A stretch of DNA of 64,000 nt from Porodaedalea pini (lineage: Eukaryota > Basidiomycota > Agaricomycetes > Hymenochaetales > Hymenochaetaceae): assembly GCA_002794775.1 (NCBI GenBank), contig NBAY01000122.1, forward strand, positions 1-64,000, in the 5' to 3' direction. Position 1 is the stretch's first letter; each line of letters opens with the position of its first letter. Made by a program: the position numbers and the translations under genes. Positions 81 through 45,400 of this stretch are shown piece after piece. The notes beneath the pieces are model-generated. The model had not been told where the DNA came from, made no database searches, and worked only from the letters and a program-made list of their open reading frames with translations.

Positions 81-777
81 GCGACGCGCGTGACCACGTG
101 AATTTTGGCGTTCGAGCACTCAAAACCTGAAAAAAATCCATGACTCATTCTATTCTTTATGGACTCTCTTCAAAAAGTTGCAGAGTTCTTCAAATAATTT
201 CTGTAATATTATTATGACCTTGTGTGGTGAAATAATTATGTGTGTAACTTGGATTGCAAGGGATAGGTGTTCAGATAGGCCAAATTCTTCCTTGATTTTT
301 CCTGAGCTCAAATTTGAGGCCAGAGACATAGAACCTGTTGGATAATGGTAAGTATAACTTATTATTATTTTTAAATAGTCTCTTTTATTGTGAGAGAGAT
401 TTCTGAAGACAGTACTAGCCAGTGTCAAATAGATTTGGCTGAGCTTCAGAGTTTCAGCAGAAAAGACAAAAAACACTGGAAAATTATTATACTATAAATC
501 AGCTAGATCAGTTTCCAAGTGGTTTCATGTCTTTAGCTTTGAAATTGAGCTCAGGAAAAATCAAGGAAGAATTTGGCCTGTCTGAACACCTATTCTTCAC
601 AATCCAAGTTATACACATAAATCTTTCATCACAAAAGGTCATTAAAAATATTACAGAAATTATTTGAAGAACTCTGCAACTTTTTTGAAGAGATTCCATA
701 AAGAATAGAATGAGTCATGGATTTTTTTCAGGTTTTGAGTGCTCGAACGCCAAAATTCACGTGATCACGCGCGTCGC
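81..777. repeat. Foldback/MITE-like element with long terminal inverted repeats
   Basis: Bases 81 to about 340 reappear inverted at about 525-777, starting GCGACGCGCGTGA and including the CACGTGAATTTTGGCG stretch. This gives arms of about 255 bp around a spacer of about 185 bp. The arms match closely with scattered substitutions. There is no convincing coding sequence and I could not define a target-site duplication. Its inner part (around GTTCAGACAGGCCAA) resembles the foldback at 5249-5673, so both belong to one dispersed non-autonomous family. Confidence 0.75.
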
Positions 778-4649: not shown

Positions 4650-4656
4650 GGAAAGT
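4650..4656 (+). repeat. Target-site duplication, left copy (GGAAAGT)
   Basis: GGAAAGT immediately precedes the CACTTCAGG end of the palindrome and is repeated directly at 21357-21363. The following base is C on both sides, so the duplication could be counted as 8 bp. The homologous 5' region of SSP-3 contains a single copy (30005-30014 region), which supports this as the target. Confidence 0.75.
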
Positions 4657-4731
4657 CACTTCAGGCCACCCCTTCAAGGAGACCTAATAGGGCAATTCAT
4701 ACACGCAACTAATTGACCTAATAGGTATCAT

Positions 4732-4916
4732 GACTGGGAGTGCCCAAATCTGCTGGGTACTCCCAATTGGGCATGCCCAAATCTGCTGGGCACTCCCAAT
4801 TGGGCATGCCCAAATCTGCTGGGCACTCCCAATTGGGCATGCCCAAATCTTCTGGGCACTCCCAATTGGGCACACCCAATCTGCTGGGCACTCCCAATTG
4901 GGTGTGCCCAAATGTG
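4732..4916. repeat. Subterminal minisatellite 1, left copy
   Basis: A tandem array of about 33-bp units around CTGGGCACTCCCAATTGGGC, ending in GCCCAAAT. The units are largely self-complementary (CCCAATTGGG, GGGCATGCCC). The left array has one more unit than its mirror. GACCTAATAGG occurs twice between the array and the element end. Open frames through the array are by-products of its period. Confidence 0.85.
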
Positions 4917-5248
4917 TCACTGTCACTGACTGTCTGGGGGACTTTTGGGCACACCCAATTTCATTTTTGCCATAAAATCTGGGACCATTAGAGGCTGTAT
5001 TTTATTGTTTTTAGCCTTACAATTTAGCACTCTTGCTGTTGATTAGGTTGCAAACTACTGGCTGCATGAATTGACCTTTGATCTGAGTTACAGTCATTTG
5101 CTGAAGTATTTACAATCACCTTTTTTGCATCTCAGAAAGTGCTCCTTTGGCTTCAAGAATCAACATTTTACTCAATTCTTCACTAATTCATGTCTAATAA
5201 ATTGCTAAATACATAGTTTAATTACTGCCAAATATCAATGAGGCAGCA

Positions 5249-5673
5249 AGTGACATGAGAAGATAAACAGCCTATTCTGTGAAGATTAGGTGTTCAGACA
5301 GGCAATATTCTTCCATAATTCTTCCTGAATTCAAATCTGAAGCTAAAGACATAAAACTTGCTAAATAATGATTTATGTAAGCTATTATGATTTTTAGATG
5401 TTTCTCTTGGGTGCAGAATAAATACTTAAAGACAGTCAATGCTAAGTAAGTTTGGCAGAGTTTTAGAGTTTCTGAAGCTAAGACAAACAAGATAGGAAAT
5501 ATACATTTCTATACACAGTCACTGCTTAAAATCATAATAAATCATATAGATCATCCTTCAGTAAGTTTTATGCCTTTAACTTCAGATTTGAACTAGGGAA
5601 GAATCAGTGAAGAATATTGCCTGTCTGAACACCTAAAATTTACAGAATAGGCTCTTTATTTTCTTACTTCACT
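5249..5673. repeat. Foldback MITE, left-arm copy
   Basis: Inverted repeat arms of about 135 bp (5249-5385 and 5540-5673) share CCTATTCTGT and GTGTTCAGACAGGCAATATT. It is related to the element at 81-777. The mirror copy is 20373-20797. Confidence 0.7.
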
Positions 5674-6068
5674 CTTTAATAACCTGTTTAGGAACATTTT
5701 TAATAGTATAATAATATGCTTGTACTTGGCTATCATGACATTAGTTATTTGTGTGTTTAGGTTGTGCTTGTCTTCATAAGAGTGTTACTGAGGTTGTATC
5801 ACCCTACATTGGCTGCTTGGGTTGACTTGACTAAATGCATATGACATTTTATGATAAAATAGTTAATTATTATAGCACTGAATTAGCTCTGTAACAACAT
5901 CTTCTAGTTATTAGCTGTGCTATTACAAAAGCATTAGCATGTCATTAAAAATGTTGCTAAAACATTGCCTAAGTTCATAATTATTGCTATTAGTCAAATT
6001 ATGAATTTAGCTACTTTTCTGACAAGAATTGAGATATTAAAGCCAAAAGAGCACTCTGTACTTTCCTA

Positions 6069-6398
6069 CAGGTGGTTTCAAAAAGTGTTTGGCCCCTCTG
6101 CTTTTGGAATTGATTGACATGGCCTAAGCAGGAAGGTGATTTGTATGATCCAAACCTCCATTCTGTGCATTCTGACATCTGTCTCCTCATCCTTCAAGCA
6201 AAATCAGTCTAGAAAAAAATTATACAGGTATTAATTATATACATACACTCAAGATACATTATTTCCTGTCAAATAATGGAAGAATCATGTATATTCAATG
6301 ACCAGTGTTTTCTCCCTTATGCTAATCACCTTCCTGCTTAGGCCATGTCAATCGGTTCCAAAAATGGGGAGGGGCTGAACACTTTTCAGAACCACCTG
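6069..6398. mobile_element. Mariner/Tc1-type MITE, left-arm copy
   Basis: A 330-bp element with inverted ends CAGGTGGTT...AACCACCTG. The repeat extends through GATTGACATGGCCTAAGCAG, and the element is flanked on both sides by TA (6067-6068, 6399-6400), the typical Tc1/mariner duplication. It has no coding capacity. The exact mirror copy is 19648-19977. Confidence 0.8.
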
Positions 6399-6779
6399 TA
6401 TATATGATATAATATATAATCTTCTATACCATATCATAGGGCTTGTAATACAGACTGTACTTTGAGCTAGAAGTTTTAAATATGATTATACTATATACAG
6501 TACAGTGCAGAGTGCAAAACTGAAGAGAACAAGAAAAAAAATAGATCTGAGGTCCAAAAAATAGCTAAGCTTGACCTGTGCTCAAATATCAGGTACAACA
6601 TTTAATGTTCATAAATTTGACTGATGCTTTAGAGACAAGCGTGACAGTATAGAGACTGCATTCTCAAGTTTATAACTAGAACTGTATATGATAATAATAT
6701 TGTATATTCTTCTGAGACTAGGCATTACTGAGTGAGACAGAGAAGTTTGATTTAGTGAGCCTAGAAAACTAGTTTATGG

Positions 6780-7370
6780 CCAGTTGGGAGTGCCCAGTTG
6801 GAAGTACCCAGTTGGGAGTGCCCAATTGGGAGTGCCTAATTGGGAGTGCCCAACTATTTGGGAGTGCCCAATTGGGAGCGCCCAACTATTGGGAGTGCCC
6901 AACTATTTGGGAGTGCCCAATTGGGAGCGCCCAACTATTGGGAGTGCCCAACTATTTGGGAGTGCCCAATTGGGAGTGCCCAACTATTGGGAGTGCCCAA
7001 CTATTTGGGAGTGCCCAATTGGGAGCGCCCAACTATTGGGAGTGCCCAATTGGGAGCGCCCAACTATTTGGGAGTGCCCAATTGGGAGCGCCCAACTATT
7101 TGGGAGTGCCCAATTGGGAGCACCCAACTATTTGGGAGTGCCCAATTGGGAGCGCCCAACTATTGGGAGTGCCCAATTGGGAGCGCCCAACTATTGGGAG
7201 TGCCCAATTGGGAGCGCCCAACTATTGGGAGTGCCCAATTGGGAGCGCCCAACTATTGGGAGTGCCCAATTGGGAGCGCCCAACTATTGGGAGTGCCCAA
7301 TTGGGAGCGCCCAACTATTGGGGAGTGCCCAACTATTTAAGAGTGCCCAATATTTGGAAATGCCCAGTTG
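6780..7370. repeat. Minisatellite 2, left copy
   Basis: About 19 units of roughly 31 bp built from TTGGGAGCGCCCAACTATT and TTGGGAGTGCCCAA variants. The units share the TTGGGAGTGCCCA core with minisatellite 1. The long frames reading repeats of WECPIGSAQL are artefacts of the unit length. The mirror copy, 18668-19266, differs by a small indel and one aberrant unit near 18820. Confidence 0.85.
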
Positions 7371-7821
7371 GGTCTCCTTTTTATTCCTGCCCAGGAATCT
7401 TTTTTATTTTATTTTTGAAATAGAAATCATTATGTCATGAAAATTAGAATATGTCTAGAATAGAAGCCTTGGTGATTCTACAGAGAATTTCTCAATCTTT
7501 CATTCTAGACTCTTATGTCACTGCCTTGCTTTCACTGGTGGCAGGTGGTCTTGACTCATGCATCTCTTAAGAGGCTAACCCAATTGCTTATATCACAATG
7601 TCAAAGCAACTGTTTCACAAGGCCTATTCTCAAGACCACCTGTGGAGGGCACCTGCACATACCACACAACTGGGTCTGACACATCAGTGGCTCTTTGCTG
7701 CATTTCACCATAAGCTGTGATAGCTCTGCCTCATCCATCTCAGGCATCACCTTGAGCTGTACAAGCCAAATGGCTGGTACAAGGTAGAATAATAAAGTAG
7801 TTGCATGCATAAAACCTGCTT

Positions 7822-10733
<2,912 letters not shown>

Positions 10734-10797
10734 TGTTCACCTGCCGTTGTCTGTGACCGATTCTGACTCAGTGGTAGCTCACGTTTGAACGTTCTTC

Positions 10798-11160
10798 GTT
10801 AAAAAGTCAGTTCGCCGGCTCGCCCCTCACTCCCGTGCTGAGCTTCTTCTCCGCGAGCCCCGTCACCTTCCCTCGCACCACCCCGATGTAGCAGAGCGCC
10901 GACTGCAGGACGCTACGTCTCGTGCATGAACGGCGAGGCGAGTGCGATGCAACGCGTATGCGACGAAGTGCGCAAGCATATTCGGTATCACTGGTGCCCC
11001 TCCTGATCCTGCTGTTGCGGTAGCGGGGGAACGCGAGACGACTGCGGTCGAGGACGATGTGGAAGAGGTGGAGGACGACGGAGGAAGGATCTCGGGGCAG
11101 TTGAAGGTATGGCTGACGAAGCGCGCGCAGAGCTTGCTGGTGTCTTCGTGCCCGTAGTAA
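10798..11160 (-). pseudogene. Cyclin-like gene fragment, left arm
   Basis: Mirror of the fragment at 14878-15240. On the minus strand it gives a TYYGHEDTSKLCARFVSHTF-type segment, then MLAHFVAYALHRTRLAVH, then in another frame ALCYIGVVRGKVTGLAEKK. I read these as remnants of a fungal PHO85-type cyclin. The assignment rests on recalled family motifs, not on an alignment. Confidence 0.4.
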
Positions 11161-11861
11161 GTGTCGATTGCCGGTGGGGGTGCTGCCGGCGTGGGGTGGT
11201 GTGAGTGGTGTGCGCGCGGGACTGCCGATGACTGTTTTTTTGTCGAACGTTTTCGGCGCAGTCGGAGGAAAAAAACGTGATAGAGAAAAAGACAGCGATC
11301 AACAGCCGCTCATCACTCAAGTATCAGAGATCGGGGGGAAAGAGGGGGGATGCTTACAAAACTCGAGGTAGTCGCTGCGGCAGCGGCGGACACAGAAGAC
11401 GATTTCGCAGGTGGAGGGGGGCGTACGTCGCACCACGCGGCGGAAGGGCGAGTGGTTCGAGCTGGCACTCGATGATGATATCGAATGCTGATGCGGATGG
11501 GGGTGGGGATGGCGCGGTGCGTGGACGATGGCCATATTCGCTGCGGCGGGCTCTCTGGCTCTGGGAGTTGACGAGCATCTGTGAGCGTCGAAGGACAGGT
11601 GGAGTCGATGCGTGAGAAGAGGTCGCTGCGAATGTTTTGATCGGAACGAGATCCTTCTCGGACACAACGGTTGCGTCGCGTTCGCCGAAGTGCTCAATGA
11701 GAAGGGCGGATGGGAAAACGGCTGACGTCGATGTTGAAGAGCGTGGATCGTCAAGGGGGGCAGGAGGAAGAGGCGAGGAACGCGTGCTGTGTGAACAGGG
11801 TGAGGGAAGTTGAACCGCACCAGTGCGGCAGAGATGGAGGGAAGAATGACCAGCAGAAAGG

Positions 11862-12062
11862 AGCACCCTGCTTCATCGGGAAGCCCTGCTTGTCGTTTCC
11901 GCCAGAGAAGCGAAAGACGTAGCCCTTGGACTCATCACCGAGCGAGTCACCGGGGATGCCTGGGACATCTTCTTGCCGTGGAAGATGCGGTAACGACGCT
12001 CATCGTCGATGTCGATCGTCTTTTGCTGGCCCGTCGCCGGGTCAGCGATGTCGACACTTCAT
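11862..12062 (-). pseudogene. RPS6: 40S ribosomal protein S6 fragment, left arm
   Basis: Mirror of 13976-14176, with the same two frameshifts. See the right-arm entry for the motifs. Confidence 0.7.
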
Positions 12063-12859
12063 GGCCGGTGGTGTCTTGAGGAGCTCGTCGTGTTCTGTCC
12101 CTTCAGGCAAGCAAAAAAATGCTGAAAAGTAGTTATTAGTATATTTAGATGGGTTTTATGAATATTTTTTTTGCTTACCTTGAGTGTGTGGCTAGTGGGA
12201 CACCTGAGCTCGTCGTCGATGGTGAAGACGAAACGATACGAACAACGACGACGCGTTGGTTGTGTTGCCTGATTTGGCCGATCGACACGTCTTAAACAAG
12301 CAATCAAAGCATTCCGAGTCTTTCGGACATCTCGAAAGACTTAGCTGCCTAGCTCAGAACATTTCTACAGACGCGTTTAAAAATACAAAAAAATATGGGA
12401 TAGTTTTATTATGTATGTATCTCTAGAATAGCCAAGAGTTACGCGTCCAACGCGTTTTTTTATGGTGTTATAAATACAACAGTAATCCTCACATGTAGCA
12501 CTAGGCCTCCAGAGGCATACACCAAAGTAAAATATATTCTGAAAGGCCTGACACCTATTCTGTCATGAAGTAAGTATTACACTTTGTATGTATGCAAGGG
12601 TTCAAGCCAATCAGACAAGAATTGACTTCATAATAGAGAAGGAGGTGACTTCATGAGATCTCCTGAATCTGAGTGTTTTGTATATCCTGTTCCCATTTTT
12701 TACTTTGATGGCACATAAAATATTGGGCATATCCAGAATAGATAGTTCTATGTTTCTGTAAATTTAAAAGTTTCCAGCCTCAGTGGTTGGAGCTGGGTGA
12801 ATTGCAAAACATCGAAAATCTTGGGTTTAAGAGGTTCAGAGAAAGCATATATTCATGTT

Positions 12860-13178
12860 TTTGGTTGGTTCAAAGTATGAGAAGCTCAACAAATTTAGTT
12901 ATTTGTATTTAAGTATGGTCCAAGAAAGATATCCAACCCTTAGTTTTGTGGGTGAGGGAAAAGTTCGGAATGGGGAGTGAAATGAGAGGTGATACAGTTC
13001 ATGTTTTGTGAAACTCGACGCAAATCCAAGAAACACAGAGTAGTTTTGCATGTATTTCCTCTCCCCCTTCAGAACTTTCCTCTAACTCCGAGATCTAGCA
13101 CCTGATTACATTTATTGTAGTCATATAAAGTATTAATATCTATTTTATAGAGCTTCCTGAGGTTTGGAATAAAGCAAC
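12860..13178. repeat. Central region of the palindrome, diverged symmetry
   Basis: These 319 bp are no longer strictly complementary, yet traces of the same axis remain. For example, AAGTTC at 12961-12966 mirrors GAACTT at 13072-13077, giving the same sum of 26038, with similar flanks. I see no gene or origin motif here. Confidence 0.6.
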
Positions 13179-13975
13179 AACATGAATATATGCTTTCTCT
13201 GAACCTCTTAAACCCAAGATTTTCGATGTTTTGCAATTCACCCAGCTCCAACCACTGAGGCTGGAAACTTTTAAATTTACAGAAACATAGAACTATCTAT
13301 TCTGGATATGCCCAATATTTTATGTGCCATCAAAGTAAAAAATGGGAACAGGATATACAAAACACTCAGATTCAGGAGATCTCATGAAGTCACCTCCTTC
13401 TCTATTATGAAGTCAATTCTTGTCTGATTGGCTTGAACCCTTGCATACATACAAAGTGTAATACTTACTTCATGACAGAATAGGTGTCAGGCCTTTCAGA
13501 ATATATTTTACTTTGGTGTATGCCTCTGGAGGCCTAGTGCTACATGTGAGGATTACTGTTGTATTTATAACACCATAAAAAAACGCGTTGGACGCGTAAC
13601 TCTTGGCTATTCTAGAGATACATACATAATAAAACTATCCCATATTTTTTTGTATTTTTAAACGCGTCTGTAGAAATGTTCTGAGCTAGGCAGCTAAGTC
13701 TTTCGAGATGTCCGAAAGACTCGGAATGCTTTGATTGCTTGTTTAAGACGTGTCGATCGGCCAAATCAGGCAACACAACCAACGCGTCGTCGTTGTTCGT
13801 ATCGTTTCGTCTTCACCATCGACGACGAGCTCAGGTGTCCCACTAGCCACACACTCAAGGTAAGCAAAAAAAATATTCATAAAACCCATCTAAATATACT
13901 AATAACTACTTTTCAGCATTTTTTTGCTTGCCTGAAGGGACAGAACACGACGAGCTCCTCAAGACACCACCGGCC

Positions 13976-14176
13976 ATGAAGTGTCGACATCGCTGACCCG
14001 GCGACGGGCCAGCAAAAGACGATCGACATCGACGATGAGCGTCGTTACCGCATCTTCCACGGCAAGAAGATGTCCCAGGCATCCCCGGTGACTCGCTCGG
14101 TGATGAGTCCAAGGGCTACGTCTTTCGCTTCTCTGGCGGAAACGACAAGCAGGGCTTCCCGATGAAGCAGGGTGCT
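13976..14176 (+). pseudogene. RPS6: 40S ribosomal protein S6 fragment, right arm
   Basis: Only the start of the protein is present. After ATGAAG the frame is shifted. It then reads [18 protein letters not shown] and RIFHGKKM, shifts again at 14078-14082, and continues as [19 protein letters not shown] and [11 protein letters not shown] in the new frame. These blocks are diagnostic of eukaryotic RPS6, a small-subunit ribosomal protein. The similarity stops after MKQG, where the family would continue. The two frameshifts are shared with the left arm, so they arose before the arms were doubled or were homogenised between them. Confidence 0.75.
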
Positions 14177-14877
14177 CCTTTCTGCTGGTCATTCTTCCCT
14201 CCATCTCTGCCGCACTGGTGCGGTTCAACTTCCCTCACCCTGTTCACACAGCACGCGTTCCTCGCCTCTTCCTCCTGCCCCCCTTGACGATCCACGCTCT
14301 TCAACATCGACGTCAGCCGTTTTCCCATCCGCCCTTCTCATTGAGCACTTCGGCGAACGCGACGCAACCGTTGTGTCCGAGAAGGATCTCGTTCCGATCA
14401 AAACATTCGCAGCGACCTCTTCTCACGCATCGACTCCACCTGTCCTTCGACGCTCACAGATGCTCGTCAACTCCCAGAGCCAGAGAGCCCGCCGCAGCGA
14501 ATATGGCCATCGTCCACGCACCGCGCCATCCCCACCCCCATCCGCATCAGCATTCGATATCATCATCGAGTGCCAGCTCGAACCACTCGCCCTTCCGCCG
14601 CGTGGTGCGACGTACGCCCCCCTCCACCTGCGAAATCGTCTTCTGTGTCCGCCGCTGCCGCAGCGACTACCTCGAGTTTTGTAAGCATCCCCCCTCTTTC
14701 CCCCCGATCTCTGATACTTGAGTGATGAGCGGCTGTTGATCGCTGTCTTTTTCTCTATCACGTTTTTTTCCTCCGACTGCGCCGAAAACGTTCGACAAAA
14801 AAACAGTCATCGGCAGTCCCGCGCGCACACCACTCACACCACCCCACGCCGGCAGCACCCCCACCGGCAATCGACAC
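14177..14877 (+). other. GC-rich captured sequence of unknown origin
   Basis: This stretch (mirror 11161-11861) has exon-like composition much richer in GC than the AT-rich outer arms. One frame gives LLIEHFGERDATVVSEKDLVPI. I do not recognise the source gene. It may be a third captured fragment lying between the RPS6 and cyclin-like pieces. Confidence 0.35.
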
Positions 14878-15240
14878 TTACTACGGGCACGAAGACACCA
14901 GCAAGCTCTGCGCGCGCTTCGTCAGCCATACCTTCAACTGCCCCGAGATCCTTCCTCCGTCGTCCTCCACCTCTTCCACATCGTCCTCGACCGCAGTCGT
15001 CTCGCGTTCCCCCGCTACCGCAACAGCAGGATCAGGAGGGGCACCAGTGATACCGAATATGCTTGCGCACTTCGTCGCATACGCGTTGCATCGCACTCGC
15101 CTCGCCGTTCATGCACGAGACGTAGCGTCCTGCAGTCGGCGCTCTGCTACATCGGGGTGGTGCGAGGGAAGGTGACGGGGCTCGCGGAGAAGAAGCTCAG
15201 CACGGGAGTGAGGGGCGAGCCGGCGAACTGACTTTTTAAC
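14878..15240 (+). pseudogene. Cyclin-like gene fragment, right arm
   Basis: The frames read YYGHEDTSKLCARFVSHTF, then a serine-rich linker, then MLAHFVAYALHRTRLAVH, and after a frameshift ALCYIGVVRGKVTGLAEKK and GVRGEP. Order and motifs resemble basidiomycete PHO85-type cyclins, which bind a cyclin-dependent kinase. Only the N-terminal half is present and it is broken, so no product is expected. Confidence in the family is moderate because no alignment could be run. Confidence 0.4.
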
Positions 15241-15304
15241 GAAGAACGTTCAAACGTGAGCTACCACTGAGTCAGAATCGGTCACAGACAACGGCAGGTG
15301 AACA

Positions 15305-18216
<2,912 letters not shown>

Positions 18217-18667
18217 AAGCAGGTTTTATGCATGCAACTACTTTATTATTCTACCTTGTACCAGCCATTTGGCTTGTACAGCTCAAGGTGATGCCTGAGA
18301 TGGATGAGGCAGAGCTATCACAGCTTATGGTGAAATGCAGCAAAGAGCCACTGATGTGTCAGACCCAGTTGTGTGGTATGTGCAGGTGCCCTCCACAGGT
18401 GGTCTTGAGAATAGGCCTTGTGAAACAGTTGCTTTGACATTGTGATATAAGCAATTGGGTTAGCCTCTTAAGAGATGCATGAGTCAAGACCACCTGCCAC
18501 CAGTGAAAGCAAGGCAGTGACATAAGAGTCTAGAATGAAAGATTGAGAAATTCTCTGTAGAATCACCAAGGCTTCTATTCTAGACATATTCTAATTTTCA
18601 TGACATAATGATTTCTATTTCAAAAATAAAATAAAAAAGATTCCTGGGCAGGAATAAAAAGGAGACC

Positions 18668-19266
18668 CAACTGGGCATTTCCAAATATTGGGCACTCTTA
18701 AATAGTTGGGCACTCCCCAATAGTTGGGCGCTCCCAATTGGGCACTCCCAATAGTTGGGCGCTCCCAATTGGGCACTCCCAATAGTTGGGCGCTCCCAAT
18801 TGGGCACTCCCAATAGTTGGGCTCCTTGGCACTCCCAATTGGGCACTCCCAATAGTTGGGCGCTCCCAATTGGGCACTCCCAATAGTTGGGCGCTCCCAA
18901 TTGGGCACTCCCAAATAGTTGGGTGCTCCCAATTGGGCACTCCCAAATAGTTGGGCGCTCCCAATTGGGCACTCCCAAATAGTTGGGCGCTCCCAATTGG
19001 GCACTCCCAATAGTTGGGCGCTCCCAATTGGGCACTCCCAAATAGTTGGGCACTCCCAATAGTTGGGCACTCCCAATTGGGCACTCCCAAATAGTTGGGC
19101 ACTCCCAATAGTTGGGCGCTCCCAATTGGGCACTCCCAAATAGTTGGGCACTCCCAATAGTTGGGCGCTCCCAATTGGGCACTCCCAAATAGTTGGGCAC
19201 TCCCAATTAGGCACTCCCAATTGGGCACTCCCAACTGGGTACTTCCAACTGGGCACTCCCAACTGG
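18668..19266. repeat. Minisatellite 2, right copy
   Basis: Mirror of 6780-7370. It contains one aberrant unit (GGGCTCCTTGGCACTCCC near 18820) absent from the left array. Confidence 0.85.
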
Positions 19267-19647
19267 CCATAAACTAGTTTTCTAGGCTCACTAAATCAAA
19301 CTTCTCTGTCTCACTCAGTAATGCCTAGTCTCAGAAGAATATACAATATTATTATCATATACAGTTCTAGTTATAAACTTGAGAATGCAGTCTCTATACT
19401 GTCACGCTTGTCTCTAAAGCATCAGTCAAATTTATGAACATTAAATGTTGTACCTGATATTTGAGCACAGGTCAAGCTTAGCTATTTTTTGGACCTCAGA
19501 TCTATTTTTTTTCTTGTTCTCTTCAGTTTTGCACTCTGCACTGTACTGTATATAGTATAATCATATTTAAAACTTCTAGCTCAAAGTACAGTCTGTATTA
19601 CAAGCCCTATGATATGGTATAGAAGATTATATATTATATCATATATA

Positions 19648-19977
19648 CAGGTGGTTCTGAAAAGTGTTCAGCCCCTCCCCATTTTTGGAACCGATTGACA
19701 TGGCCTAAGCAGGAAGGTGATTAGCATAAGGGAGAAAACACTGGTCATTGAATATACATGATTCTTCCATTATTTGACAGGAAATAATGTATCTTGAGTG
19801 TATGTATATAATTGATACCTGTATAATTTTTTTCTAGACTGATTTTGCTTGAAGGATGAGGAGACAGATGTCAGAATGCACAGAATGGAGGTTTGGATCA
19901 TACAAATCACCTTCCTGCTTAGGCCATGTCAATCAATTCCAAAAGCAGAGGGGCCAAACACTTTTTGAAACCACCTG
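19648..19977. mobile_element. Mariner/Tc1-type MITE, right-arm copy
   Basis: The 330-bp mirror of 6069-6398, with TA at 19646-19647 and 19978-19979. Confidence 0.8.
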
Positions 19978-20372
19978 TAGGAAAGTACAGAGTGCTCTTT
20001 TGGCTTTAATATCTCAATTCTTGTCAGAAAAGTAGCTAAATTCATAATTTGACTAATAGCAATAATTATGAACTTAGGCAATGTTTTAGCAACATTTTTA
20101 ATGACATGCTAATGCTTTTGTAATAGCACAGCTAATAACTAGAAGATGTTGTTACAGAGCTAATTCAGTGCTATAATAATTAACTATTTTATCATAAAAT
20201 GTCATATGCATTTAGTCAAGTCAACCCAAGCAGCCAATGTAGGGTGATACAACCTCAGTAACACTCTTATGAAGACAAGCACAACCTAAACACACAAATA
20301 ACTAATGTCATGATAGCCAAGTACAAGCATATTATTATACTATTAAAAATGTTCCTAAACAGGTTATTAAAG

Positions 20373-20797
20373 AGTGAAGTAAGAAAATAAAGAGCCTATT
20401 CTGTAAATTTTAGGTGTTCAGACAGGCAATATTCTTCACTGATTCTTCCCTAGTTCAAATCTGAAGTTAAAGGCATAAAACTTACTGAAGGATGATCTAT
20501 ATGATTTATTATGATTTTAAGCAGTGACTGTGTATAGAAATGTATATTTCCTATCTTGTTTGTCTTAGCTTCAGAAACTCTAAAACTCTGCCAAACTTAC
20601 TTAGCATTGACTGTCTTTAAGTATTTATTCTGCACCCAAGAGAAACATCTAAAAATCATAATAGCTTACATAAATCATTATTTAGCAAGTTTTATGTCTT
20701 TAGCTTCAGATTTGAATTCAGGAAGAATTATGGAAGAATATTGCCTGTCTGAACACCTAATCTTCACAGAATAGGCTGTTTATCTTCTCATGTCACT
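20373..20797. repeat. Foldback MITE, right-arm copy
   Basis: Mirror of 5249-5673. Confidence 0.7.
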
Positions 20798-21129
20798 TGC
20801 TGCCTCATTGATATTTGGCAGTAATTAAACTATGTATTTAGCAATTTATTAGACATGAATTAGTGAAGAATTGAGTAAAATGTTGATTCTTGAAGCCAAA
20901 GGAGCACTTTCTGAGATGCAAAAAAGGTGATTGTAAATACTTCAGCAAATGACTGTAACTCAGATCAAAGGTCAATTCATGCAGCCAGTAGTTTGCAACC
21001 TAATCAACAGCAAGAGTGCTAAATTGTAAGGCTAAAAACAATAAAATACAGCCTCTAATGGTCCCAGATTTTATGGCAAAAATGAAATTGGGTGTGCCCA
21101 AAAGTCCCCCAGACAGTCAGTGACAGTGA

Positions 21130-21281
21130 CACATTTGGGCACACCCAATTGGGAGTGCCCAGCAGATTGGGTGTGCCCAATTGGGAGTGCCCAGAAGATT
21201 TGGGCATGCCCAATTGGGAGTGCCCAGCAGATTTGGGTGTGCCTAATTGGGAGTGCCCAGCAGATTTGGGCACTCCCAGTC
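21130..21281. repeat. Subterminal minisatellite 1, right copy
   Basis: Mirror of 4732-4916, shorter by one 33-bp unit. Confidence 0.85.
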
Positions 21282-21356
21282 ATGATACCTATTAGGTCAA
21301 TTAGTTGCGTGTATGAATTGCCCTATTAGGTCTCCTTGAAGGGGTGGCCTGAAGTG

Positions 21357-21363
21357 GGAAAGT
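21357..21363 (+). repeat. Target-site duplication, right copy (GGAAAGT)
   Basis: Direct repeat of 4650-4656, adjoining the outer end CCTGAAGTG of the right arm. Confidence 0.75.
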
Positions 21364-23058: not shown

Positions 23059-23544
23059 TGTTAGGACTTGAACTTTTACCTTTTCTTTTATTTTCCCTTT
23101 TACCACTTCCTTTCTTTTAACTGCCCCTTTCCATTATATTTAACCTTTTTTCATAATCATTTCCCATTCTTATGTCATACACGATCATTCCCACACTCAC
23201 TTAGTACGACCCAACCTTCATTCGTTCCATTCCTAGTTACGTAAACTATACAGTACTTAGATAATACAATCCCGTGGATGACGCTATATAGAGGAAGGTG
23301 GAATCGCAGAAGCCCCCTGTTCTGCTTTTCCTCTTACCTCCACATCGTCCAGGTGAGACCTGTCCCCCCTGTATTAGTTAGACTTATATTAATCCTCTTA
23401 CCTCCACATCGTCCAGTCTGAGTAAACTCGCTGCCCGAACTTCGCGTTTGAGATACAGCCCGCCCCAGACAACGTCCGTGTCACCGTCAGGTGCCACACG
23501 TTGAGGTTGCCTAGTCTGAGTTCCACCCAGACTTCCACCTAACA
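23059..23544 (+). repeat. 5' LTR of the SSP-3 gypsy element
   Basis: Begins TGTTAGGACTTG and ends CCTAACA. It holds a TATA box at 23285-23291 (TATATAG) and, 34 bp on, GTTCTGCTTTT (23319-23329), the inferred start of the RNA. Confidence 0.9.
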
Positions 23545-23545
23545 T

Positions 23546-23556
23546 AAAAGCAGAAC
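23546..23556 (+). promoter_or_regulatory. Self-priming type primer-binding site
   Basis: AAAAGCAGAAC lies one base after the 5' LTR and is the exact reverse complement of 23319-23329, the likely RNA 5' end. It has no TGG start, so it does not match a tRNA 3' CCA end. Tf1/sushi-type elements prime reverse transcription with their own RNA 5' end in this way. Confidence 0.7.
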
Positions 23557-24146
23557 CCCGCCCAGGCTCATCCCCAGCGTACGTTGTCGCTGTCGACTCG
23601 CCTTCACTCAGTCTAGAGGAGCGCTCCCCTCAACGGACTTGACATGTAAACCCCCTAAACGACAACCCTCAACCCTGCCCGGATGTTTTCGGATGTTCAT
23701 GTATTATGTAAACTTTGCAACCGACTTTTCCCAACCCTGGCTCTCCGCATCTCCCTTTGGTGGAGGAGCCACTTAACCTGGATGTGGGTGACATTACGTG
23801 TACAGTTGTCGATGTCGTTGTCGATTGTTATCACTGCCGCGTCCTTCCGTCTCATTATCAACTTTGCCGACGAACCCATTCAACGTTGGTGTAACCCTGG
23901 ATCAAATGCTCAACCGATCCCTGTTCCCCTGCTGTCGTCAACATAGATCTCACCGACGAACAGCAATGGGCCCTTCCTGCATCAGCTCATTGGAATCCAG
24001 ACCGACCAGGCTACATCGCGACCAACAACAGCGGCGTTGTACACAATATCTGGTGGAGTGAAGTCCGGCACAGCTGGTATTCGTCAGACGAACAAGGAAG
24101 GAGAGCGAGGTGGCCCCCGGCAGCTCCATCATCGCCTGCACCATCA

Positions 24147-25334
24147 ATGTCTACGGTCCTCCTGCTGCCTACTCCAGGCCCTTACTGTGAGACTCATAGA
24201 GACCCTTCACCGCCAACCCCCCCTGAACCTTTGACGCCCATGCCCAAACCCACAATGTCAACAGGAGGTTTCAGTCAACAGCAGATGGAACAGATCACGG
24301 CAATTGTCACAGGTGCCTTTGCCCATCAGGTGAACAATGCCCCAGCACCGGTCGCTGCAGCTAACCCCCCAACCCCCAACATCGACGTCACCCGGCCACG
24401 TGAATTCACTGGTGGCAATGACTACCTAGACTTTAAATGCGAGGTCCTCCTTTTTGTCTCTGCAAACCCGAACCGGTACCCCACGTCAGAGAGTAAGATA
24501 TACATTGCTCTCTCCTACTTGAAGGGTGGTAATGCAGCAATGTGGGCACAGAATTATGTGGAAGAGTCAATGACAGCTGGAATCGTGACCTTCACCGACA
24601 GTTGGACAAGGTTCCAAGAGCGCCTAGATGCCTCGTTCGATGACCCGAACTGAAAGGAAAAAGCGCTAGCAGAATTCCGAACCAAAGTTCAGAAGGACCT
24701 CACCACCAACGAGTTTTTCCAGAAGCTCAATGTCATCATCATGAGAGTGGGACTGATGGACAACAGCATCATCTGTGACCACCTAAAGCACGCGATGAAC
24801 ATCGAGGTGGTCCGAGGGGTATTGAGGTCGATGCCGGTCCCAACCACGTACAACAACTGGAAGAAGAAGGCCATCGAGATCGATCATGGCGAACAACAGA
24901 TCTGCATGATACAACGAGGTTGTGCATTCCCACTTCCGCCGCACCAGCAACAACAGGCACCCCTGGCTCATCGACAGATCCCGGCCCCCCACGTCGACAA
25001 ACGTGATGCGACTGGCGTTACTTTCAGAGGTGCTGGCCAGCCAATGGACGTCTCGATGAACGAGGTGCAATGGAGGAGGGCATGCTGGATCTGTGGTAAA
25101 CTCGGCCACTTCAAAGACACGTGCCCACAAGGGAAGACGATCGTGCAGCGCATGCTGCAGATGATGGCGCCAGGCGAGCATCGTCTTCTTGCTGATGAGC
25201 TGGGTGCGATGAAGGAATCGGCCTTTGAGGAAGTCATAGACACTCGGAGGTCGACTGTGGAGGACTATGTGGAAGAAGACGGCGATGACGAAGAGGTTGT
25301 CGACTCGCAGGGTTTTGCGAGTGGTCAGGTGTAG
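24147..25334 (+). pseudogene. gag of the SSP-3 gypsy element (one nonsense codon)
   Basis: Capsid/nucleocapsid polyprotein. The proline-rich N-terminus is followed by a gag core (PREFTGGNDYLDFK, AMWAQNYVEESM) and near the C-terminus by the zinc knuckle CWICGKLGHFKDTC (C-x2-C-x4-H-x4-C). TGA at 24651-24653 interrupts the core where related copies in the window read NRK or NQK. The reading frame is otherwise open to the TAG at 25332-25334. The pol frame lies at -1 relative to gag and is open across this stop. Confidence 0.85.
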
Positions 25335-28300
25335 CCATCGGGAAGACTGACCGGGAAGAACAAGGGGTTTCGGATTCGGACTCAATAAAATATAGTCAAC
25401 CGTCTGTACAATACTTAGATGCAAATGACATCAATGACTTTCCCGATTACGAAGCCCCCACTGATGTGAACGAAGATGAAGAGTACGAACAGCTGTTCAT
25501 GAGAGGAACTGGCGGACACCAGCTGGACCTTCTCCTGAACGTCAGACACAGCATAGCGGGTGAAGTGAGGGAGGTGGATGCGCACGCCCTCGTAGATTTG
25601 GGGTGCACAGGGTCGTGCATCGACGTAAGGTTCGTCAAAAGGTATGGGTTAGAGATGAAACATTATATCCGACCCCTTGCAGTGCTCAATGCTGACGGTA
25701 TGCACAACGAGGCCGGGTTGATTGAGAAGTACGTCGACGTTGAACTTATGATCGGCCACCATATGGAACGGATCATCCTTGCGGTAACCTCGCTAGCATC
25801 GTCTAACATATTCCTAGGGTATGACTGGCTTCGACGTCACAATCCTGAGGTCGACTGGAAGACGGGTACGCTCGACTTCACCTGCTGTCCAAGCAAATGT
25901 ACGGTTGAGAGGGTTGTGGAAGAAGATGTGAGGAAGGTGGAAAAGGCTGTGGAAGAGATGAGGAGGGTGAGAGAGGTGCGAATGGACAAGACGTCCTGGC
26001 CCGCATACCTCAACGACTATGCTAATGTCTTCAGCGAGAAAGGCTTTGAGAAGCTGCCAGAACATCGACCCTGGGACCACATCATCGACTTCAAACCTGA
26101 CTTCAAACCTAGCGATTGCAAGATCTATCCGCTCATGCCAACTGAGCAACAATTGCTAAAGGACTTCCTCGACGAGAACTTGAAGTCTGGTCATATCCAA
26201 CGATCAATATCGCCCATGGCATCACCCTTCTTCTTCATCAAGAAGGCCGACAAGTCACTACACCCGATCCAGGATTACCATAAGCTCAATGACAGTACAA
26301 TCAAGAACAAGTATCCCCTCCCTCTCATCGACGAACTCGCCGACAAGGTCAAGAAAGTGAAGTACATCACTAAGCTTGACCTTCGCTGGGGATACTACAA
26401 CATCCGGATCCACGAAGGCGATGAGTGGAAGGCAGCCTTTCGCACGAATATGGGTCTCTTTGAACCGACGGTCATGTTCTTTGGTCTTTGCAATGCACCG
26501 GCAATGTTCCAAGCCTTCATCAACCACATCTTCAAGGGACTAATCTACGATAACCTGATCATCGTCTATCTCGATGACATCCTCATTCTTTCACAAACTC
26601 TTGAGGAACATATTGAGATGTCGAGGCGCGTCCTTCAGATCTTGCGAGAGAACGGCCTGTACCTGAAACCAGAAAAATACGAGTTCGACACCAAGACTGT
26701 GAAATACCTCAGCCACGTCATCGGCAATGGCGAAATCAGGGCTGACCTGGTGAAGACGGAGGCGATTGCAGACTGGCCAGTCCTGCGAAACCTCAAACAG
26801 CTGCAACAATTCCTCAGCATGGGCAACTGGCTGCGATGGTTCATCAAGGACTACAGCAAAGTGGTCCATCCGCTAACGTCACTGACGGGCAAGAAGGACT
26901 GGGTATGGGAGACTGAACAGCAAGAAGTGTTTGAGGAGTTGAGATGATGTCTCTGCTCACCTCCAGTCCTGGCCATTGCGAACAATGAGGGCCCTTTCCA
27001 CGTTGAGGCGGACTCATCAAACTTCACGCTTGGAGGCGTGTTGTTGCAGAAGCAGGAAGGCAAGTGGAGGGTAATCGCCTACAGGTCTGAAGCGCTCCTG
27101 CCAGCAGAACGAAACTGTTAGGCGGGAGTCTGGGAGACGACTCGGACTGGGCAGGCCTCAGCTGACTGTCGTCTGGGACGTGCTATACTCGAGTGGGGAC
27201 TCGGGACACGCTTTACTCAGGCTAGGTCGTCGCGGAGGTAAGAGGATTAATACAAGTCTAAACTAATACAGGGGGGACGAGTCTCACCTAGGTCATTGTG
27301 GAGGTAAGAGGAAAAGCAGAACAAGGAGTTCATGCGATTCCTGAGATCTTATATAGTGGCGACCATGAGACTATATTATCTAATGTTACATAAATGAACG
27401 GAATGGAACGAATGAAGGTCATGTGGAGGGAGTGTGGGAAATGATTGAAAAGACGATTAAATATAATGAAAAAGAGCGGTTAAAAGAAAATAAATGGTAA
27501 AAGGGAAAATAAAAGACAGGGTGAAAGTTCAAGTCCTAACAGAAACTATGAGATCTACGACAAGGAGATGCTCATGATTGTTTCAGCACTCAAAGAGTGG
27601 AGACAGTACCTTCTCGGCGCCCATCACCCTATCGAGATCTGGTCTGATCACGCCAACCTCACCTACTTCAGGTCGGCGCAAAAGCTGAGCTATTGACAAG
27701 CTCGCTGGCAGACAGAGCTCAAGGAATTTGACTTCCACCTCGAGCACAAGTCGGGGAAGACCATGGGCAAGGCGGACTTACTGTTGCGAAAGGCCAGTTA
27801 CGACGAGGGGAAGGATGATAACGATGGTGTCATGTTCATCAAGGAGAAGTGGCTGAATCGTGGAGTGGTGAGGACATCGTGTGACGAGGTGTTGGAATGA
27901 GTGGGTGAAGCACAGAGGGTGCAGAATGAGTCGGAGAGGCCGACAGGAATGACAGAGGTCGACGGTTTGTGGCGGATAAGAGGCAAGGTGTACGTGCCGT
28001 CGACGATGAAGGAGGCCGTATTGCGGGAATGTCACGACTCGGTACTGGCTGGACACCCAGGAGCGTCGAAAACAGTGGAGCTTGTCCGTCGAGACTTCTG
28101 GTGGATGTCGATGTTCTCCGACGTCCGAGCATATGTCCGAGGGTGTGATCGCTGTCAGTGAACAAAGGCTCTGAGGGCATCAAGGTCAAGGCCACTTCAC
28201 CCAAATGCAGTCCCTGAAGGCCCCTGGGAAATCATCACAGTCGACCTCATCGGAGAGCTCCTGGACTCCAAGGGGCACAACGCAATCTGCATCTTTGTTG

Positions 28301-29391
28301 ATAGGTTCTCGAAACAGATGCATGCTATCCCGATGATGACAAAGTTGTCAGCGGAAGGCATGGCTCAGCTGTACCGTGACCACATCTTCTGCCTCCATGG
28401 CTTGCCAAAAAAGATCATCCATGACCAAGGCACGCAGTTCGATGCATTGATGATGAAGGAACTGTACAAACTCCTACACATCGAAGGCAACCCATTGATG
28501 GCGTACCACCCACAAACAGATGGTCAAATGGAACGCGTTAACCAAGAGCTCAAACAGTACCTTCAACTCTTCGTTAACCATCGTCAATTGGACTGGAAGG
28601 ACTGGCTCCCCCTCACAGAGTTCGCGTACAACAACCGCAAACACTCAGCGACAAAAATGTCCCCCTTCTATGCGAACACAGGACGTCACCCCTTGAGCTT
28701 TGACACAACACAAACCTCGTCTGCCAACATGTTGGCGGAAGAATTCGCAAAGCACATCAAGGAGACTCATCACGTTGTGAAGGACAACTTGGTCAAGGTG
28801 GCAGACAACATGAAGCGCTACCACGACCGGACAGCAGGGACTTCAGTGGAGTACAAGGCTGGAGACAAGGTTTTCCTCGATGGGCAAAACATCAGCACAG
28901 ATTCGCTGACAAAGAAACTCACTGACAAATGGCATGGTCCCTTCGAGATCATCGACAAGGTGGGAGCTAGCGCATACAAACTCAGGCTCCCCAAGCGATG
29001 GAAGAAGGTCCACCCAGTCTTCAACGAGGCCCTGCTAAAGCCTGCCGTCAAACCATCCTTCGAGAGCCAGAAACAACCAGCACCGCCGCCACCTGACATC
29101 GTCGACAACGAGGAGGAGTACGAGATCGAGGAAGTTCTAGACTCGCGTCTGCACCGAGGAAAGCTACAGTACCTCGTCAAGTGGGTTGGCTACAACGAAC
29201 CGACTTGGCAGCCCAAGATGGACTTTGGCGAGAACACAAAGGAGGCGAACACTGAATTCTATTGAAAACATCCCAGCGCCCCTCGAAAACTCGACATTCC
29301 TCGCCAACGACTTCACCCGTGCTTCGTCGACACCGAACCAGATGACCTCGATCTTGGTTGGTCGGGACGCCCAACCTTGAGGGGGGGGTAA
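25335..29391 (+). pseudogene. pol of the SSP-3 gypsy element (protease-RT-RNase H-integrase-chromodomain)
   Basis: The protease motif reads DLGCTGSCID, where other copies have DSG, so the catalytic serine position is altered. RT shows KLDLRWGYYNIRI, FGLCNAPAMFQ and YLDDILI. TGA at 26945-26947 (CGA in the copy at 45240) ends the RT frame. A reversed solo LTR plus TSD (431 bp) shifts the downstream coordinates. RNase H, integrase (zinc-binding H..H..C..C, GMAQLYRD, YHPQTDGQMERVNQ) and a C-terminal chromodomain (EYEIEEVLDSRLHRGKLQYL) follow. More TGA codons lie near 27697, 27898, 28159 and 29263. The related copy in 42812-53224 reads on to a TAA abutting the LTR. Confidence 0.85.
27116..27541 (-). 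repeat. Reversed solo LTR inside pol
   Basis: 426 bp, TGTTAGGCGG...GTCCTAACA, flanked by perfect GAAAC duplications (27111-27115, 27542-27546). It matches the LTR subtype at 42812-43235 and 52800-53224. Orientation is opposite to the host element. Confidence 0.9.
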
Positions 29392-29877
29392 TGTTAGGAC
29401 TTGAACTTTTACCTTTTCTTTTATTTTCCCTTTTACCACTTCCTTTCTTTTAACTGCCCCTTTCCATTATATTTAACCTTTTTTCATAATCATTTCCCAT
29501 TCTTATGTCATACACGATCATTCCCACACTCACTTAGTACGACCCAACCTTCATTCGTTCCATTCCTAGTTACGTAAACTATACAGTACTTAGATAATAC
29601 AATCCCGTGGATGACGCTATATAGAGGAAGGTGGAATCGCAGAAGCCCCCTGTTCTGCTTTTCCTCTTACCTCCACATCGTCCAGGTGAGACCCGTCCCC
29701 CCTGTATTAGTTAGACTTATATTAATCCTCTTACCTCCACATCGTCCAGTCTGAGTAAACTCGCTGCCCGAACTTCGCATTTGAGATACAGCCCGCCCCA
29801 GACAACGTCCGTGTCACCGTCAGGTGCCGCATGTTGAGGTTGCCTAGTCTGAGTTCCACCCAGACTTCTGCCTAACA
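29392..29877 (+). repeat. 3' LTR of the SSP-3 gypsy element
   Basis: Same 486-bp length and termini as the 5' LTR. A G-rich tract (29381-29388) and the TAA end of pol directly precede it. Confidence 0.9.
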
Positions 29878-42478: not shown

Positions 42479-45400
42479 TCAAAAGTTGCGACGAGCAGGG
42501 CAGTCAGGAGACCGCACGCTGTGATTACCTTGGCAATTAATGCAGTGCGCAAAATGTTCGCATTGCAGATTGTTAGATAAGGTGCAGGGGGCGCATTTGG
42601 CGACATGAACAGCCGTGTGGTGTGTCTCAGAGCAAATCACACAGCGAGCTACTGAGCGACATTTCGAAGCAGGGTGACCCAATCAGTGACAGTTGTCGCA
42701 TTGGTTGATGACTGGCTGGGCTTTCATTTCTTCAAGGCAGCAGATAACCCCGAATACTGGGACAGAACGATTGTTGTGAAGGAAGAAGTGGTCGAAGCAG
42801 AGGCAATCATCTGTTAGGCGGGAGTCCGGGAGACGACTCGGACTGGGCAGGCCTCAGCTGACTGTCGTCTGGGACGTGTTATACTCAAGTGGGGACTCGG
42901 GACACACTTTACTCAGGCTAGGTTGTCACGGAGGTAAGAGGATTAATACAAGTCTAAACTAATACACAGGGGATGAGTCTCACCTAGGTCGTCACGGAGG
43001 TAAGAGGAAAAGCAGAACAAGGAGTTCATGTGATTCCTGAGACCTTATATAGTGGCAACCATGAGACTATATTATCTAATGTTACATAAATGAACAGAAT
43101 GGAACGAATGAAGGTCATGTGGAGGGAGTGTGGGAAATGATTGAAAAGATGACTAAATATAATGAAAAGGAGCGGTTAAAAGAAAAGAAATGGTAAAGGT
43201 AAAATAAAATAAAGATGAAAGTTCAAGTCCTAACATTACCCCCCCTTCAAGGTTGGGCGTCCCGACCAACCAAGATCGAGGTCGTCTGGTTCGGTGTCGA
43301 TGAAGCGTGAGTGAAGTCGTTGGTGAGGAATGTTGAGTTTTCGAGGGGCGCCGGGGTGTTTTTGATAGAATTCAGCGATCGCCTCCTTTGCATTCTCGCC
43401 AAGGTCTATCTCGGGTTGCCAAGTCAGTTCGTTGTAGCCAACCCACTTGACGAGGTATTGTAGCTTCCCTTGGTGCAGACGCGAGTCTAGAACTTCCTCA
43501 ATCTCGTACTCCTCATTGTTGACGATGTCAGGCAGCAGTGGTGGTGGTTGTTTTTGGCTCTCAAAGGATGGTTCGACAGCAGGCTTTAGCAGGGCCTCGT
43601 TGAAGACCGGGTGGACCTTCTTCCATCACTTGGGGAGCTTGAGCTTGTACATGCTAGCTCCCACCTTGTCGACGATCTCTAAGGGACCATACCACTTGTC
43701 AGTGAGTTTCTTCATCGGCGAATCTGTGCTGATGTTTCGCCCATCGAGGAAAACCTTGTCTCCAGCCTTGTACTCCACCGAAGTCCCTGCTGTCCTGTCA
43801 TGATAGCGCTTCATGTCATCCGCTGCCTTGACTAAGTTGTCCTTTGCAACGCGATGAGTCTCCTTGATGTGCTTCGCGAATTCTTCCACTGACATGTTAG
43901 CAGATGAGGTTTGTGTTGTGTCAAAGCTCAAGGGGTGACGTCCTGTGTTTGCATAGAAGGGGGACATTTTCATCGCCGAGTGTTCGCGGTTGTTGTACAC
44001 AAACTCTGCAAGGGGGAGCCAGTCCTTCCAGTCCGATTGACGATGGTTAACAAAGAGTCGAAGGTACTGTTTGAGCTCTTGGTTAACGCGTTCTGTTTGA
44101 CCATCTGTCTGTGGGTGATACGCCATCAATGGGTTGCCTTCGATGTGTAGGAGTTTGTACAGTTCCTTCATCATTGACGCATCGAAATGTGTGCCTCGGT
44201 CATGGATGATCTTTTTCAGCAAGCCATGGAGGCAGAAGACATGGTCGTGGTACAGCTGAGCCATGCCTTCCGCTGACAACTTCGTCGTCATCGGGATAGC
44301 ATGCATCTGTTTTGAGAACCTATCAACAAAGACGCAGATTGTGTTGTGCCCCTTGGAGTCCGGGAGCTCTCTGATGAGGTCGACCATGACGATTTCCCAG
44401 GGGCCTTCAGGGACTGCGTTTGGGTGGAGTGGCCTTGACTTTGACGCCCTCAGAGCCTTTGTTCACTGACAGCGATCACACCCTCAGACATACGCTCGGA
44501 CGTCGGAGAACATCAATGTCCACCAGAAGTCTCAACGGACAAGCTCCACCGTTTTTGACGCTCCTGGGTGTCCAGCCAGTACCGAGTCGTGACATTCCCA
44601 CAATACGGCCTCCTTCATCGTCGATGGCACATACACCTTGCCTCTCATCTGCCACAACCTGGCGACTTCTGTCATACCTGTCGGCCTCTCCAACCCATCC
44701 TGCACCCTCTGCACGTCACCCACTCGTTCCAACACCTCATCACGCAACGTTTGCACCACCCCATGGTTCAACCACTTCTCCTTGATGAACACGACACCCT
44801 CGTTGTCATCCTTGCCTTGGTCATACCCAGCCTTGCGTGACAGCAGGTCAGCCTTGCCCATTGTCTTTCCTGACTTATGCTCGAGGTGGAAGTTGAATTC
44901 TTCGAGTTCAGTCCGCCAGCGAGCTTGACGATAGCTCAGCTTTTGTGCTGATCGAAAATAGGTGAGGTTGGCATGGTCGGACCAGATTTCAATCTTGTGC
45001 CAGGTGCCGAGGAGGTATTGTCGCCACTCCTTGAGTGCCGAAACTATTGCGAGCATCTCCTTATTGTAGATCTTGTAGTTTCATTCCACAGGTAGGAGTG
45101 CTTCTGACCTGTAGGCCACCACCCTCCACTTGCCCTCCTGCTTCTGCAACAACACACCACCAAGCGCAAAGTTTGACGAGTCCGCTTCTATGTGGAAAGG
45201 GCCCTTGTCATTGGCGATAGCCAGGACTGGAGGTGAGCAGAGACGTCGTCTCAGCTCCTCGAACGCTTCCTGCTGTTCGGTCTCCCATACCCAGTCCTTC
45301 TTGCCCGTCAGCGAGGTCAGTGGGTGGACTACCTTGCTGTAGTCCTTGATGAACTGTCGCAGCCAGTTGCCCATGCCGAGGAATTGTTGCAGCTGTTTGA

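What the first reader, a model, noticed from the sequence alone, without database searches (positions are those of the whole stretch)
4657..21356. A 16.7-kb near-perfect palindrome that behaves like a transposed unit
Two 8.2-kb arms mirror each other around base 13019. The outer ends are matching inverted repeats (CACTTCAGG) bordered by the same GGAAAGT. The two flanks are halves of one host locus: SSP-2 coding sequence on the left, its TATA box and leader on the right. The uninterrupted paralogous leader of SSP-3 shows the join. Terminal inverted repeats of this size with a target duplication and no transposase do not match an element type I know. An assembly fold-back would mirror the flanks too, and it does not.
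Basis: partly seen in the sequence, partly recalled or inferred. Interest (0 to 1): 0.92.

Follow-up and report, generated by a model that had tools for sequence, protein, structure and literature searches.

The report
Giant mirror-image fungal transposon family
A 16.7-kb near-perfect mirror-image stretch of DNA, in what is likely a mushroom-type fungus, is one of about fifty mirrored copies in that genome; it carries mirrored pieces of the host's own housekeeping genes, is likely moved by a transposase made by rarer relatives elsewhere in the genome, and likely keeps its two halves identical by copying one half onto the other.

Summary
The palindrome is real (4657-21356; arms about 8.2 kb, 289-nt spacer, GGAAAGT on both outer sides). 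It is not a one-off: the genome holds 107 exact copies of its two terminal-word variants, forming 41 facing pairs. Of 29 elements scored, 21 have an exact 7- or 8-bp target duplication (mismatched pairings: 1 of 812). Two long members with the same kind of ends (C28, C2) encode a KDZ (Kyakuja-Dileera-Zisupton) transposase, so the window copy is best read as a non-autonomous fold-back KDZ element. Fifty places hold a mirrored pair of a host RPS6 fragment; the window copy also carries XPB, and twenty others carry HSP90, each in both arms. In 22 elements compared at the centre the spacer is the same in one orientation, so the palindrome is old; yet left and right arms are identical at 1195 sites in 20 of 22, while lineages differ at 164 or more. 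HSP90 interrupts RPS6 at mirrored places, so kilobase insertions were copied between arms. This mix is a new variant of a known kind. Against a simple picture: 8 of 29 lack an exact duplication, one further element has another spacer, and three near relatives have swapped arms (ectopic recombination or misassembly).

The parts
4650..4656 (.). Left copy of the target duplication GGAAAGT
4657..12874 (+). Left arm, beginning CACTTCAGGCCACCCC
   Evidence: terminal word shared genome-wide
4736..7331 (+). Span of left arm that holds the subterminal arrays of GGGAGTGCCCA / TGGGCACTCCC; candidate transposase-binding repeats (inferred)
   Evidence: 52 copies in the element, 0 in the other 47.3 kb of the window
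8058..10814 (-). XPB/RAD25 gene fragment in left arm (mirror of 15224-17980)
   Evidence: mirror coordinates computed
11864..12091 (-). RPS6 fragment in left arm (mirror of 13947-14174)
   Evidence: mirror coordinates computed
12875..13163 (.). Central spacer, shared in one orientation with 21 other elements compared
13164..21356 (-). Right arm, ending CCTGAAGTG
13947..14174 (+). RPS6 fragment, 90% identical to the native gene on C81
15224..17980 (+). XPB/RAD25 fragment, 94.1% identical over 2767 aligned positions to C6:1206065-1203299, introns included
18707..21277 (-). Span of right arm that holds the mirrored subterminal arrays
21357..21363 (.). Right copy of the target duplication GGAAAGT

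Best explanation
The 16.7-kb palindrome is a non-autonomous fold-back member of a family whose long members encode a KDZ transposase; it was likely inserted here as one unit by such a transposase acting in trans, and its two arms are likely kept identical by gene conversion in which one arm serves as template for the other. Shown: shared termini, 7-8-bp target duplications, a KDZ transposase in two members with the same kind of termini, one common spacer in 22 of 22 elements compared, mirrored host-gene fragments and mirrored divergence. Inferred: that this KDZ protein moves the palindromes, that the subterminal repeats bind it, that the copying step is gene conversion or gap repair from the opposite arm, and that host fragments (RPS6 first; HSP90 in one lineage, XPB in another) entered one arm during break repair and were then copied to the other.
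For: Termini: 20 + 87 exact places, reversed control of the larger set 0, 41 facing pairs 10.7-35.1 kb apart. Duplications: 21 of 29 exact (14 of 7 bp, 7 of 8 bp), cross pairs 1 of 812. KDZ domain in C2 (8.1e-54) and C28 (2.4e-60), CxC1 in C2; terminal parts of palindromic C66 match C28 at 91-96%. Arms: left-right differences 4 in total over 22 elements x 1195 sites against a mean of 1534 (minimum 475) in 10000 reshuffled pairings; C35 against window 104 of 1292 in each arm. Mirrored captures: RPS6 50 pairs of 107 places, XPB 9 pairs, HSP90 20 elements (both pair counts read off the tables). HSP90 piece sits inside RPS6 in C37, both arms.
Against: The window copy has no transposase, and no KDZ-bearing member with its own variant of the terminal word (GGCCACCCC) was found. 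8 of 29 elements lack an exact duplication. C24, C65a and C83 have arms closer to another element's arm than to their own (18, 13, 12 differences within; 2, 3, 0 between). C25, outside the 22, has a different spacer of about 507 nt. Spacer and arm divergence do not scale together. The long-read quality of the assembly is unknown, and contig C19 ends 45 nt short of a full arm.
Confidence: 0.7

Rival explanations
1. Same element type, but the arms are born identical: each cycle of movement or repair rebuilds the palindrome from a single arm through a hairpin intermediate, rather than by later gene conversion.
For: Left and right arms identical in 20 of 22 centres and 0 of 5460 in the window. Only 4 unmirrored differences in all.
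Against: The same spacer in the same relative orientation in 22 of 22 means the centre was not remade at new places; C25's different spacer could be one such remaking. Nothing here shows a hairpin intermediate.
Confidence: 0.2
2. The palindromes are moved by a transposase other than the C28/C2 type, or by an extinct relative, and the shared ends with C28/C2 reflect common descent only.
For: No KDZ-bearing member with the GGCCACCCC variant was found among the fetched pairs; the genome has 77 KDZ matches of several kinds; only C28 and C2 carry close relatives of that transposase.
Against: The terminal 16 bases differ by one letter, and duplication lengths (7-8 bp) are shared by C28 and the palindromes.
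Confidence: 0.15
3. Assembly artefact: a missed-adapter or fold-back read was assembled as a palindrome.
For: Three relatives have swapped arms, C65a-left and C24-right share the only cross duplication, and contig C19 ends near a palindrome centre.
Against: Flanks outside the arms differ, with matching 7-8-bp duplications in 21 of 29. The same spacer recurs in 22 elements. Lineages differ at many sites mirrored in both arms, which read errors would not produce.
Confidence: 0.03
4. Inverted segmental duplication of one host region with no transposition.
For: The arms hold genomic, intron-bearing gene pieces.
Against: The donor genes lie on different contigs (RPS6 C81, XPB C6, HSP90 C3), and the termini and duplications recur in many copies.
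Confidence: 0.01

Closest known systems
KDZ (Kyakuja-Dileera-Zisupton) DNA transposons of fungi (PMC12730594 and PMC12810828, passages read)
   Same: KDZ transposase and CxC1 cluster in the long members; 7-8-bp duplications; CA..TG ends.
   Different: The two Laccaria Kyakuja families described there have no inverted repeats; Cryptococcus KDZ1-3 have 139-241-bp ones. Here they are kilobases long and make up nearly the whole non-autonomous element. No TET/JBP gene was seen in the frames scanned.
Galileo, a Foldback-like P-superfamily element of Drosophila (PMC3573991 passages; PMC3688188 abstract)
   Same: Long inverted repeats with internal tandem repeats, longest in non-autonomous copies; 7-bp duplications; chimeric copies flanked by non-matching 7-mers, as in C24 and C65a.
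   Different: Galileo repeats reach 1.25 kb, here up to 8.2 kb; different transposase superfamily; no mirrored host genes reported in the passages I read.
Pack-TYPE non-autonomous DNA transposons of plants (PMC8903248, search listing and start of abstract only)
   Same: Non-autonomous DNA transposons that carry captured host DNA.
   Different: Here each captured piece is present twice, in mirror image.
Palindromes of sex chromosomes kept alike by gene conversion (willow paper PMC7023750, search listing only; mammalian Y from recall)
   Same: Arms evolve together.
   Different: Those are fixed chromosomal structures; this one is mobile and multi-copy.

Membership tests
KDZ superfamily | KDZ transposase core (PF18758) in members with these ends | tested here: met
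   C2 8.1e-54, C28 2.4e-60; absent from the window copy, which is non-autonomous
KDZ superfamily | CxC-type cysteine cluster next to the core | tested here: met
   CxC1 3.5e-6 in C2, just over its cut-off; not scanned in C28
KDZ superfamily | 7-8-bp target duplication | tested here: met
   21 of 29 exact, 8 of 29 not
Kyakuja (as the two Laccaria families of PMC12730594) | CA..TG ends without inverted repeats | tested here: not met
   Ends are CA..TG, but inverted repeats run for kilobases
Kyakuja / Dileera / Zisupton | Place of the transposase in a tree with named references | not tested
   No named reference sequences were at hand; so filed only at superfamily level
Foldback / Galileo (P superfamily) | Long inverted repeats with internal tandem repeats | tested here: met
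Foldback / Galileo (P superfamily) | P-type transposase with THAP domain | tested here: not met
   No THAP or P-type match in the 10 frames of C2 and 4 of C28 scanned; KDZ found instead. So it works like a Foldback element but is not filed as one of that superfamily
Pack-TYPE | Captured host gene fragments in a non-autonomous DNA transposon | tested here: met
   RPS6 and XPB in the window copy; HSP90 in C37

The most novel reading that the evidence does not exclude
A DNA transposon whose genome is a giant palindrome: each arm is a full backup of the other, a single arm can regenerate the whole by hairpin or arm-to-arm copying, and every host gene it captures is doubled in mirror image, so a transcript across the centre would be a ready-made silencing hairpin against the host gene.
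Probability: 0.2. Interest if true: 0.92.

Novelty: new variant of a known kind. Interest (0 to 1): 0.74.

Why it matters
Large palindromes are regarded as fragile, yet here dozens of them, mostly 13-20 kb, sit in one genome, spread as units, and stay symmetric while lineages diverge. That gives some fifty natural replicates in which to study how palindromes are maintained, and nested captures that order the steps: HSP90 interrupts RPS6, so RPS6 came first. It extends KDZ elements to the fold-back design, and it warns that such elements may break or mis-join fungal assemblies.

Tried and rejected
Rejected: assembly fold-back (duplications, shared centre, mirrored divergence); inverted segmental duplication (donor genes on three contigs); P/Galileo transposase (KDZ found instead). 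A PCL-type cyclin gene, guessed from reading the translation, was not supported: the frame scanned there (window 10807-11298) had no Pfam match. Two frames of C2 and three of C1b are Ty3-type retrotransposon genes, not element genes. A protein search with one unknown frame of C28 gave 4 relatives, two of them hypothetical proteins of Mycena leptocephala; its function stays unknown and the host is named only as likely mushroom-type. CpG decay explains only part of the XPB divergence (38 of 154 differences). Left out of the 29 elements scored for duplications: 12 of the 41 facing pairs, namely C21 (its right end was not recognised after reorientation), C2 (its last 22 bases were not fetched), and ten whose ends were not fetched (nine elements and the outer of two nested in C50). 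For C50 the inner right end was used. Left out of the RPS6 pair count: 6 of 113 matches (the native gene and five overlapping second matches). The tool scored only its best candidates (150 of 193 for RPS6, 83 of 91 for HSP90), so those counts are lower bounds. Absence of fold-back KDZ elements from print rests only on the searches and on passages of the papers named.
Full report
Observation. The palindrome is present at the stated place. Three arm pairs together cover 4657-12874 and 13164-21356 with a 289-nt spacer. Alignment of the left arm with the reverse-complemented right arm finds few differences, most of them in tandem arrays and at the spacer edge, and none over 7400-12859. The ends read CACTTCAGGCCACCCC, each bordered outside by GGAAAGT. 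The left flank matches the paralogous SSP-3 gene up to and including GGAAAGT, and the right flank resembles the next part of the SSP-3 leader. SSP-3 itself is split by an LTR element in its coding part, so 'uninterrupted' holds for its leader only.

It is a family. The window is contig C122 of a 53.27-Mb genome in 201 contigs. The terminal word occurs exactly 20 times as CACTTCAGGCCACCCC and 87 times as CACTTCAGGCTACCCC; the reversed control of the latter gives 0. They form 8 and 33 facing pairs, 10.7-35.1 kb apart. Nine elements were fetched whole or nearly so, and the ends of 20 more. Of 29 elements scored, window included, 14 have an exact 7-bp and 7 an exact 8-bp duplication; among 812 mismatched left-right pairings one matches, C65a-left with C24-right. 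The other eight: C30, C14b, C25, C24 and C65a have none, C40 has 6 bp, C46 and C49 have 7 bp with one mismatch. For copy C29a the genome holds a related repeat, 91% identical, in which the two flanks adjoin but for 6 missing bases at the join.

The long members are KDZ. C2 (29.6 kb) and C28 (22.1 kb, 8-bp duplication) share a core with a KDZ transposase domain (8.1e-54 and 2.4e-60) and, in C2, a CxC1 cluster. The genome has 77 KDZ matches in all, but only the C28 and C2 genes are close to each other (87% over most of the exon, 70% over its start; the next are about 70%). The terminal parts of palindromic C66 match C28 at 91-96%. Kyakuja is reported with 7-bp and Zisupton with 8-bp duplications, and the two Laccaria Kyakuja families with CA..TG ends and no inverted repeats (PMC12730594, passages read). 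Active Cryptococcus KDZ elements have 139-241-bp inverted repeats and 4-8-bp duplications (PMC12810828, passages read). A Marasmius paper classifies KDZ elements of that mushroom (PMC8290104, passages read). Kilobase inverted repeats on a KDZ element did not come up in the searches; a review of giant transposons has no mention of KDZ (PMC6431247, term counts and one passage).

Host gene pieces. The window arm aligns to the native XPB/RAD25 locus on C6 over 2767 positions at 94.1%, introns included, so genomic DNA was captured. A search for the XPB C-terminal domain gives 26 matches: the native gene and 25 in element copies, in which I count nine mirrored pairs. A ribosomal protein S6 piece lies nearer the centre, 90% identical to the native gene on C81. 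Of 107 places carrying it besides the native gene, 100 form 50 mirrored pairs and 7 are unpaired. In C37 a 1.08-kb HSP90 piece, 95.8% identical to the native gene on C3, interrupts the RPS6 piece with loss of about 8 bases, in both arms. I count mirrored HSP90 matches in 20 elements and one-sided ones in two; the 18 RPS6 pairs spaced 4.0-4.5 kb apart are all among the 20. In C35 and the window copy RPS6 is not interrupted there, so HSP90 came later.

Arms evolve together. At the centre, 22 of 22 elements share one spacer in one relative orientation. Over 1195 ungapped arm columns 276 vary, but left and right of the same element differ at only 4 sites in all, 2 each in C40 and C30. The summed distance is 4, against a mean of 1534 and a minimum of 475 in 10000 reshuffled pairings. 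C35 and the window copy differ at 104 of 1292 sites in each arm; for C24 it is 103 and 102, for C30 72 and 78. Sixty substitutions private to one element are mirrored in its two arms, 52 of them in the three most distant elements. Together with the mirrored HSP90 and XPB pieces this calls for copying from arm to arm after the palindrome arose. Whether by gene conversion, gap repair or hairpin replication is not decided here.

Results against a simple picture. C24, C65a and C83 each have arms that match another element's arm better than their own partner: C24-right/C65a-left 2 differences, C65a-right/C83-left 3, C83-right/C24-left 0, against 18, 13 and 12 within the elements over 5460 bp. C24 and C65a lack duplications of their own, but C65a-left and C24-right share one. 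Chimeric Galileo copies flanked by non-matching 7-mers are alike in this (PMC3573991, passages read), but mis-joining by an assembler would look the same. C25, not among the 22, has a different spacer of about 507 nt with identical 2396-nt arms. The spacer has diverged less than the arms between old lineages (1.9% against 8.1%, C35 and window) and more between young ones (1.4% against 0.2%, C35 and C70, three changes each); I cannot explain this. Contig C19 ends 45 nt short of a full arm.

Working model. A transposase of the C28/C2 type would act on the shared ends, likely helped by arrays of GGGAGTGCCCA, which occur 18-88 times in 9 of 10 elements examined (a relaxed form 22-94 times in 10 of 10) and not at all in the other 47.3 kb of the window. 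Galileo's long repeats hold multiple transposase-binding sites of this sort (PMC3688188, abstract). Breaks in one arm would be repaired from the other, which makes the arms alike and doubles captured host DNA. The host is likely a mushroom-type fungus: two of the four relatives found for a C28 protein are from Mycena leptocephala.

Noticed in passing
window 23062-29733: An LTR element with 99.7% identical ends splits the coding part of SSP-3; related LTR sequence recurs at 27239-27538, 42935-43232, 49424-49735 and 52923-53221.
   Followed up: partly
G000 C24:176814-193792, C65:1102-17865, C83:38879-55453 (L018-L023): Arms of three elements are swapped among one another, and C65a-left and C24-right share a duplication ATAATTTC: real ectopic exchange or mis-joined contigs.
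   Followed up: partly
window 12875-13163 and centres L079-L092: Spacer diverges less than the arms between old lineages but more between young ones; unexplained.
   Followed up: partly
G000 C19:602904-611076: Contig ends 45 nt short of a full palindrome arm, which suggests that palindromes break the assembly.
   Followed up: partly
window 209-647 and 5249-5673: Two inverted-repeat pairs, one outside and one inside the element, share similar stretches by eye; perhaps one small element family.
   Followed up: no
window 6069-6398: A small TA-flanked stretch with ends CAGGTGGTT..AACCACCTG, seen by eye; looks like a mariner-type miniature element, mirrored in the other arm.
   Followed up: no
L024:6677-8386:- and L025:2144-4348:+ (element C28): Open frames of 570, 388 and 346 aa near the KDZ gene have no Pfam match and relatives in C2; function unknown, 4 relatives found for the 388-aa frame.
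   Followed up: partly
window about 62863-63520: A further SSP-like gene on the plus strand; a 54-nt stretch matches SSP-2 at 81%.
   Followed up: no
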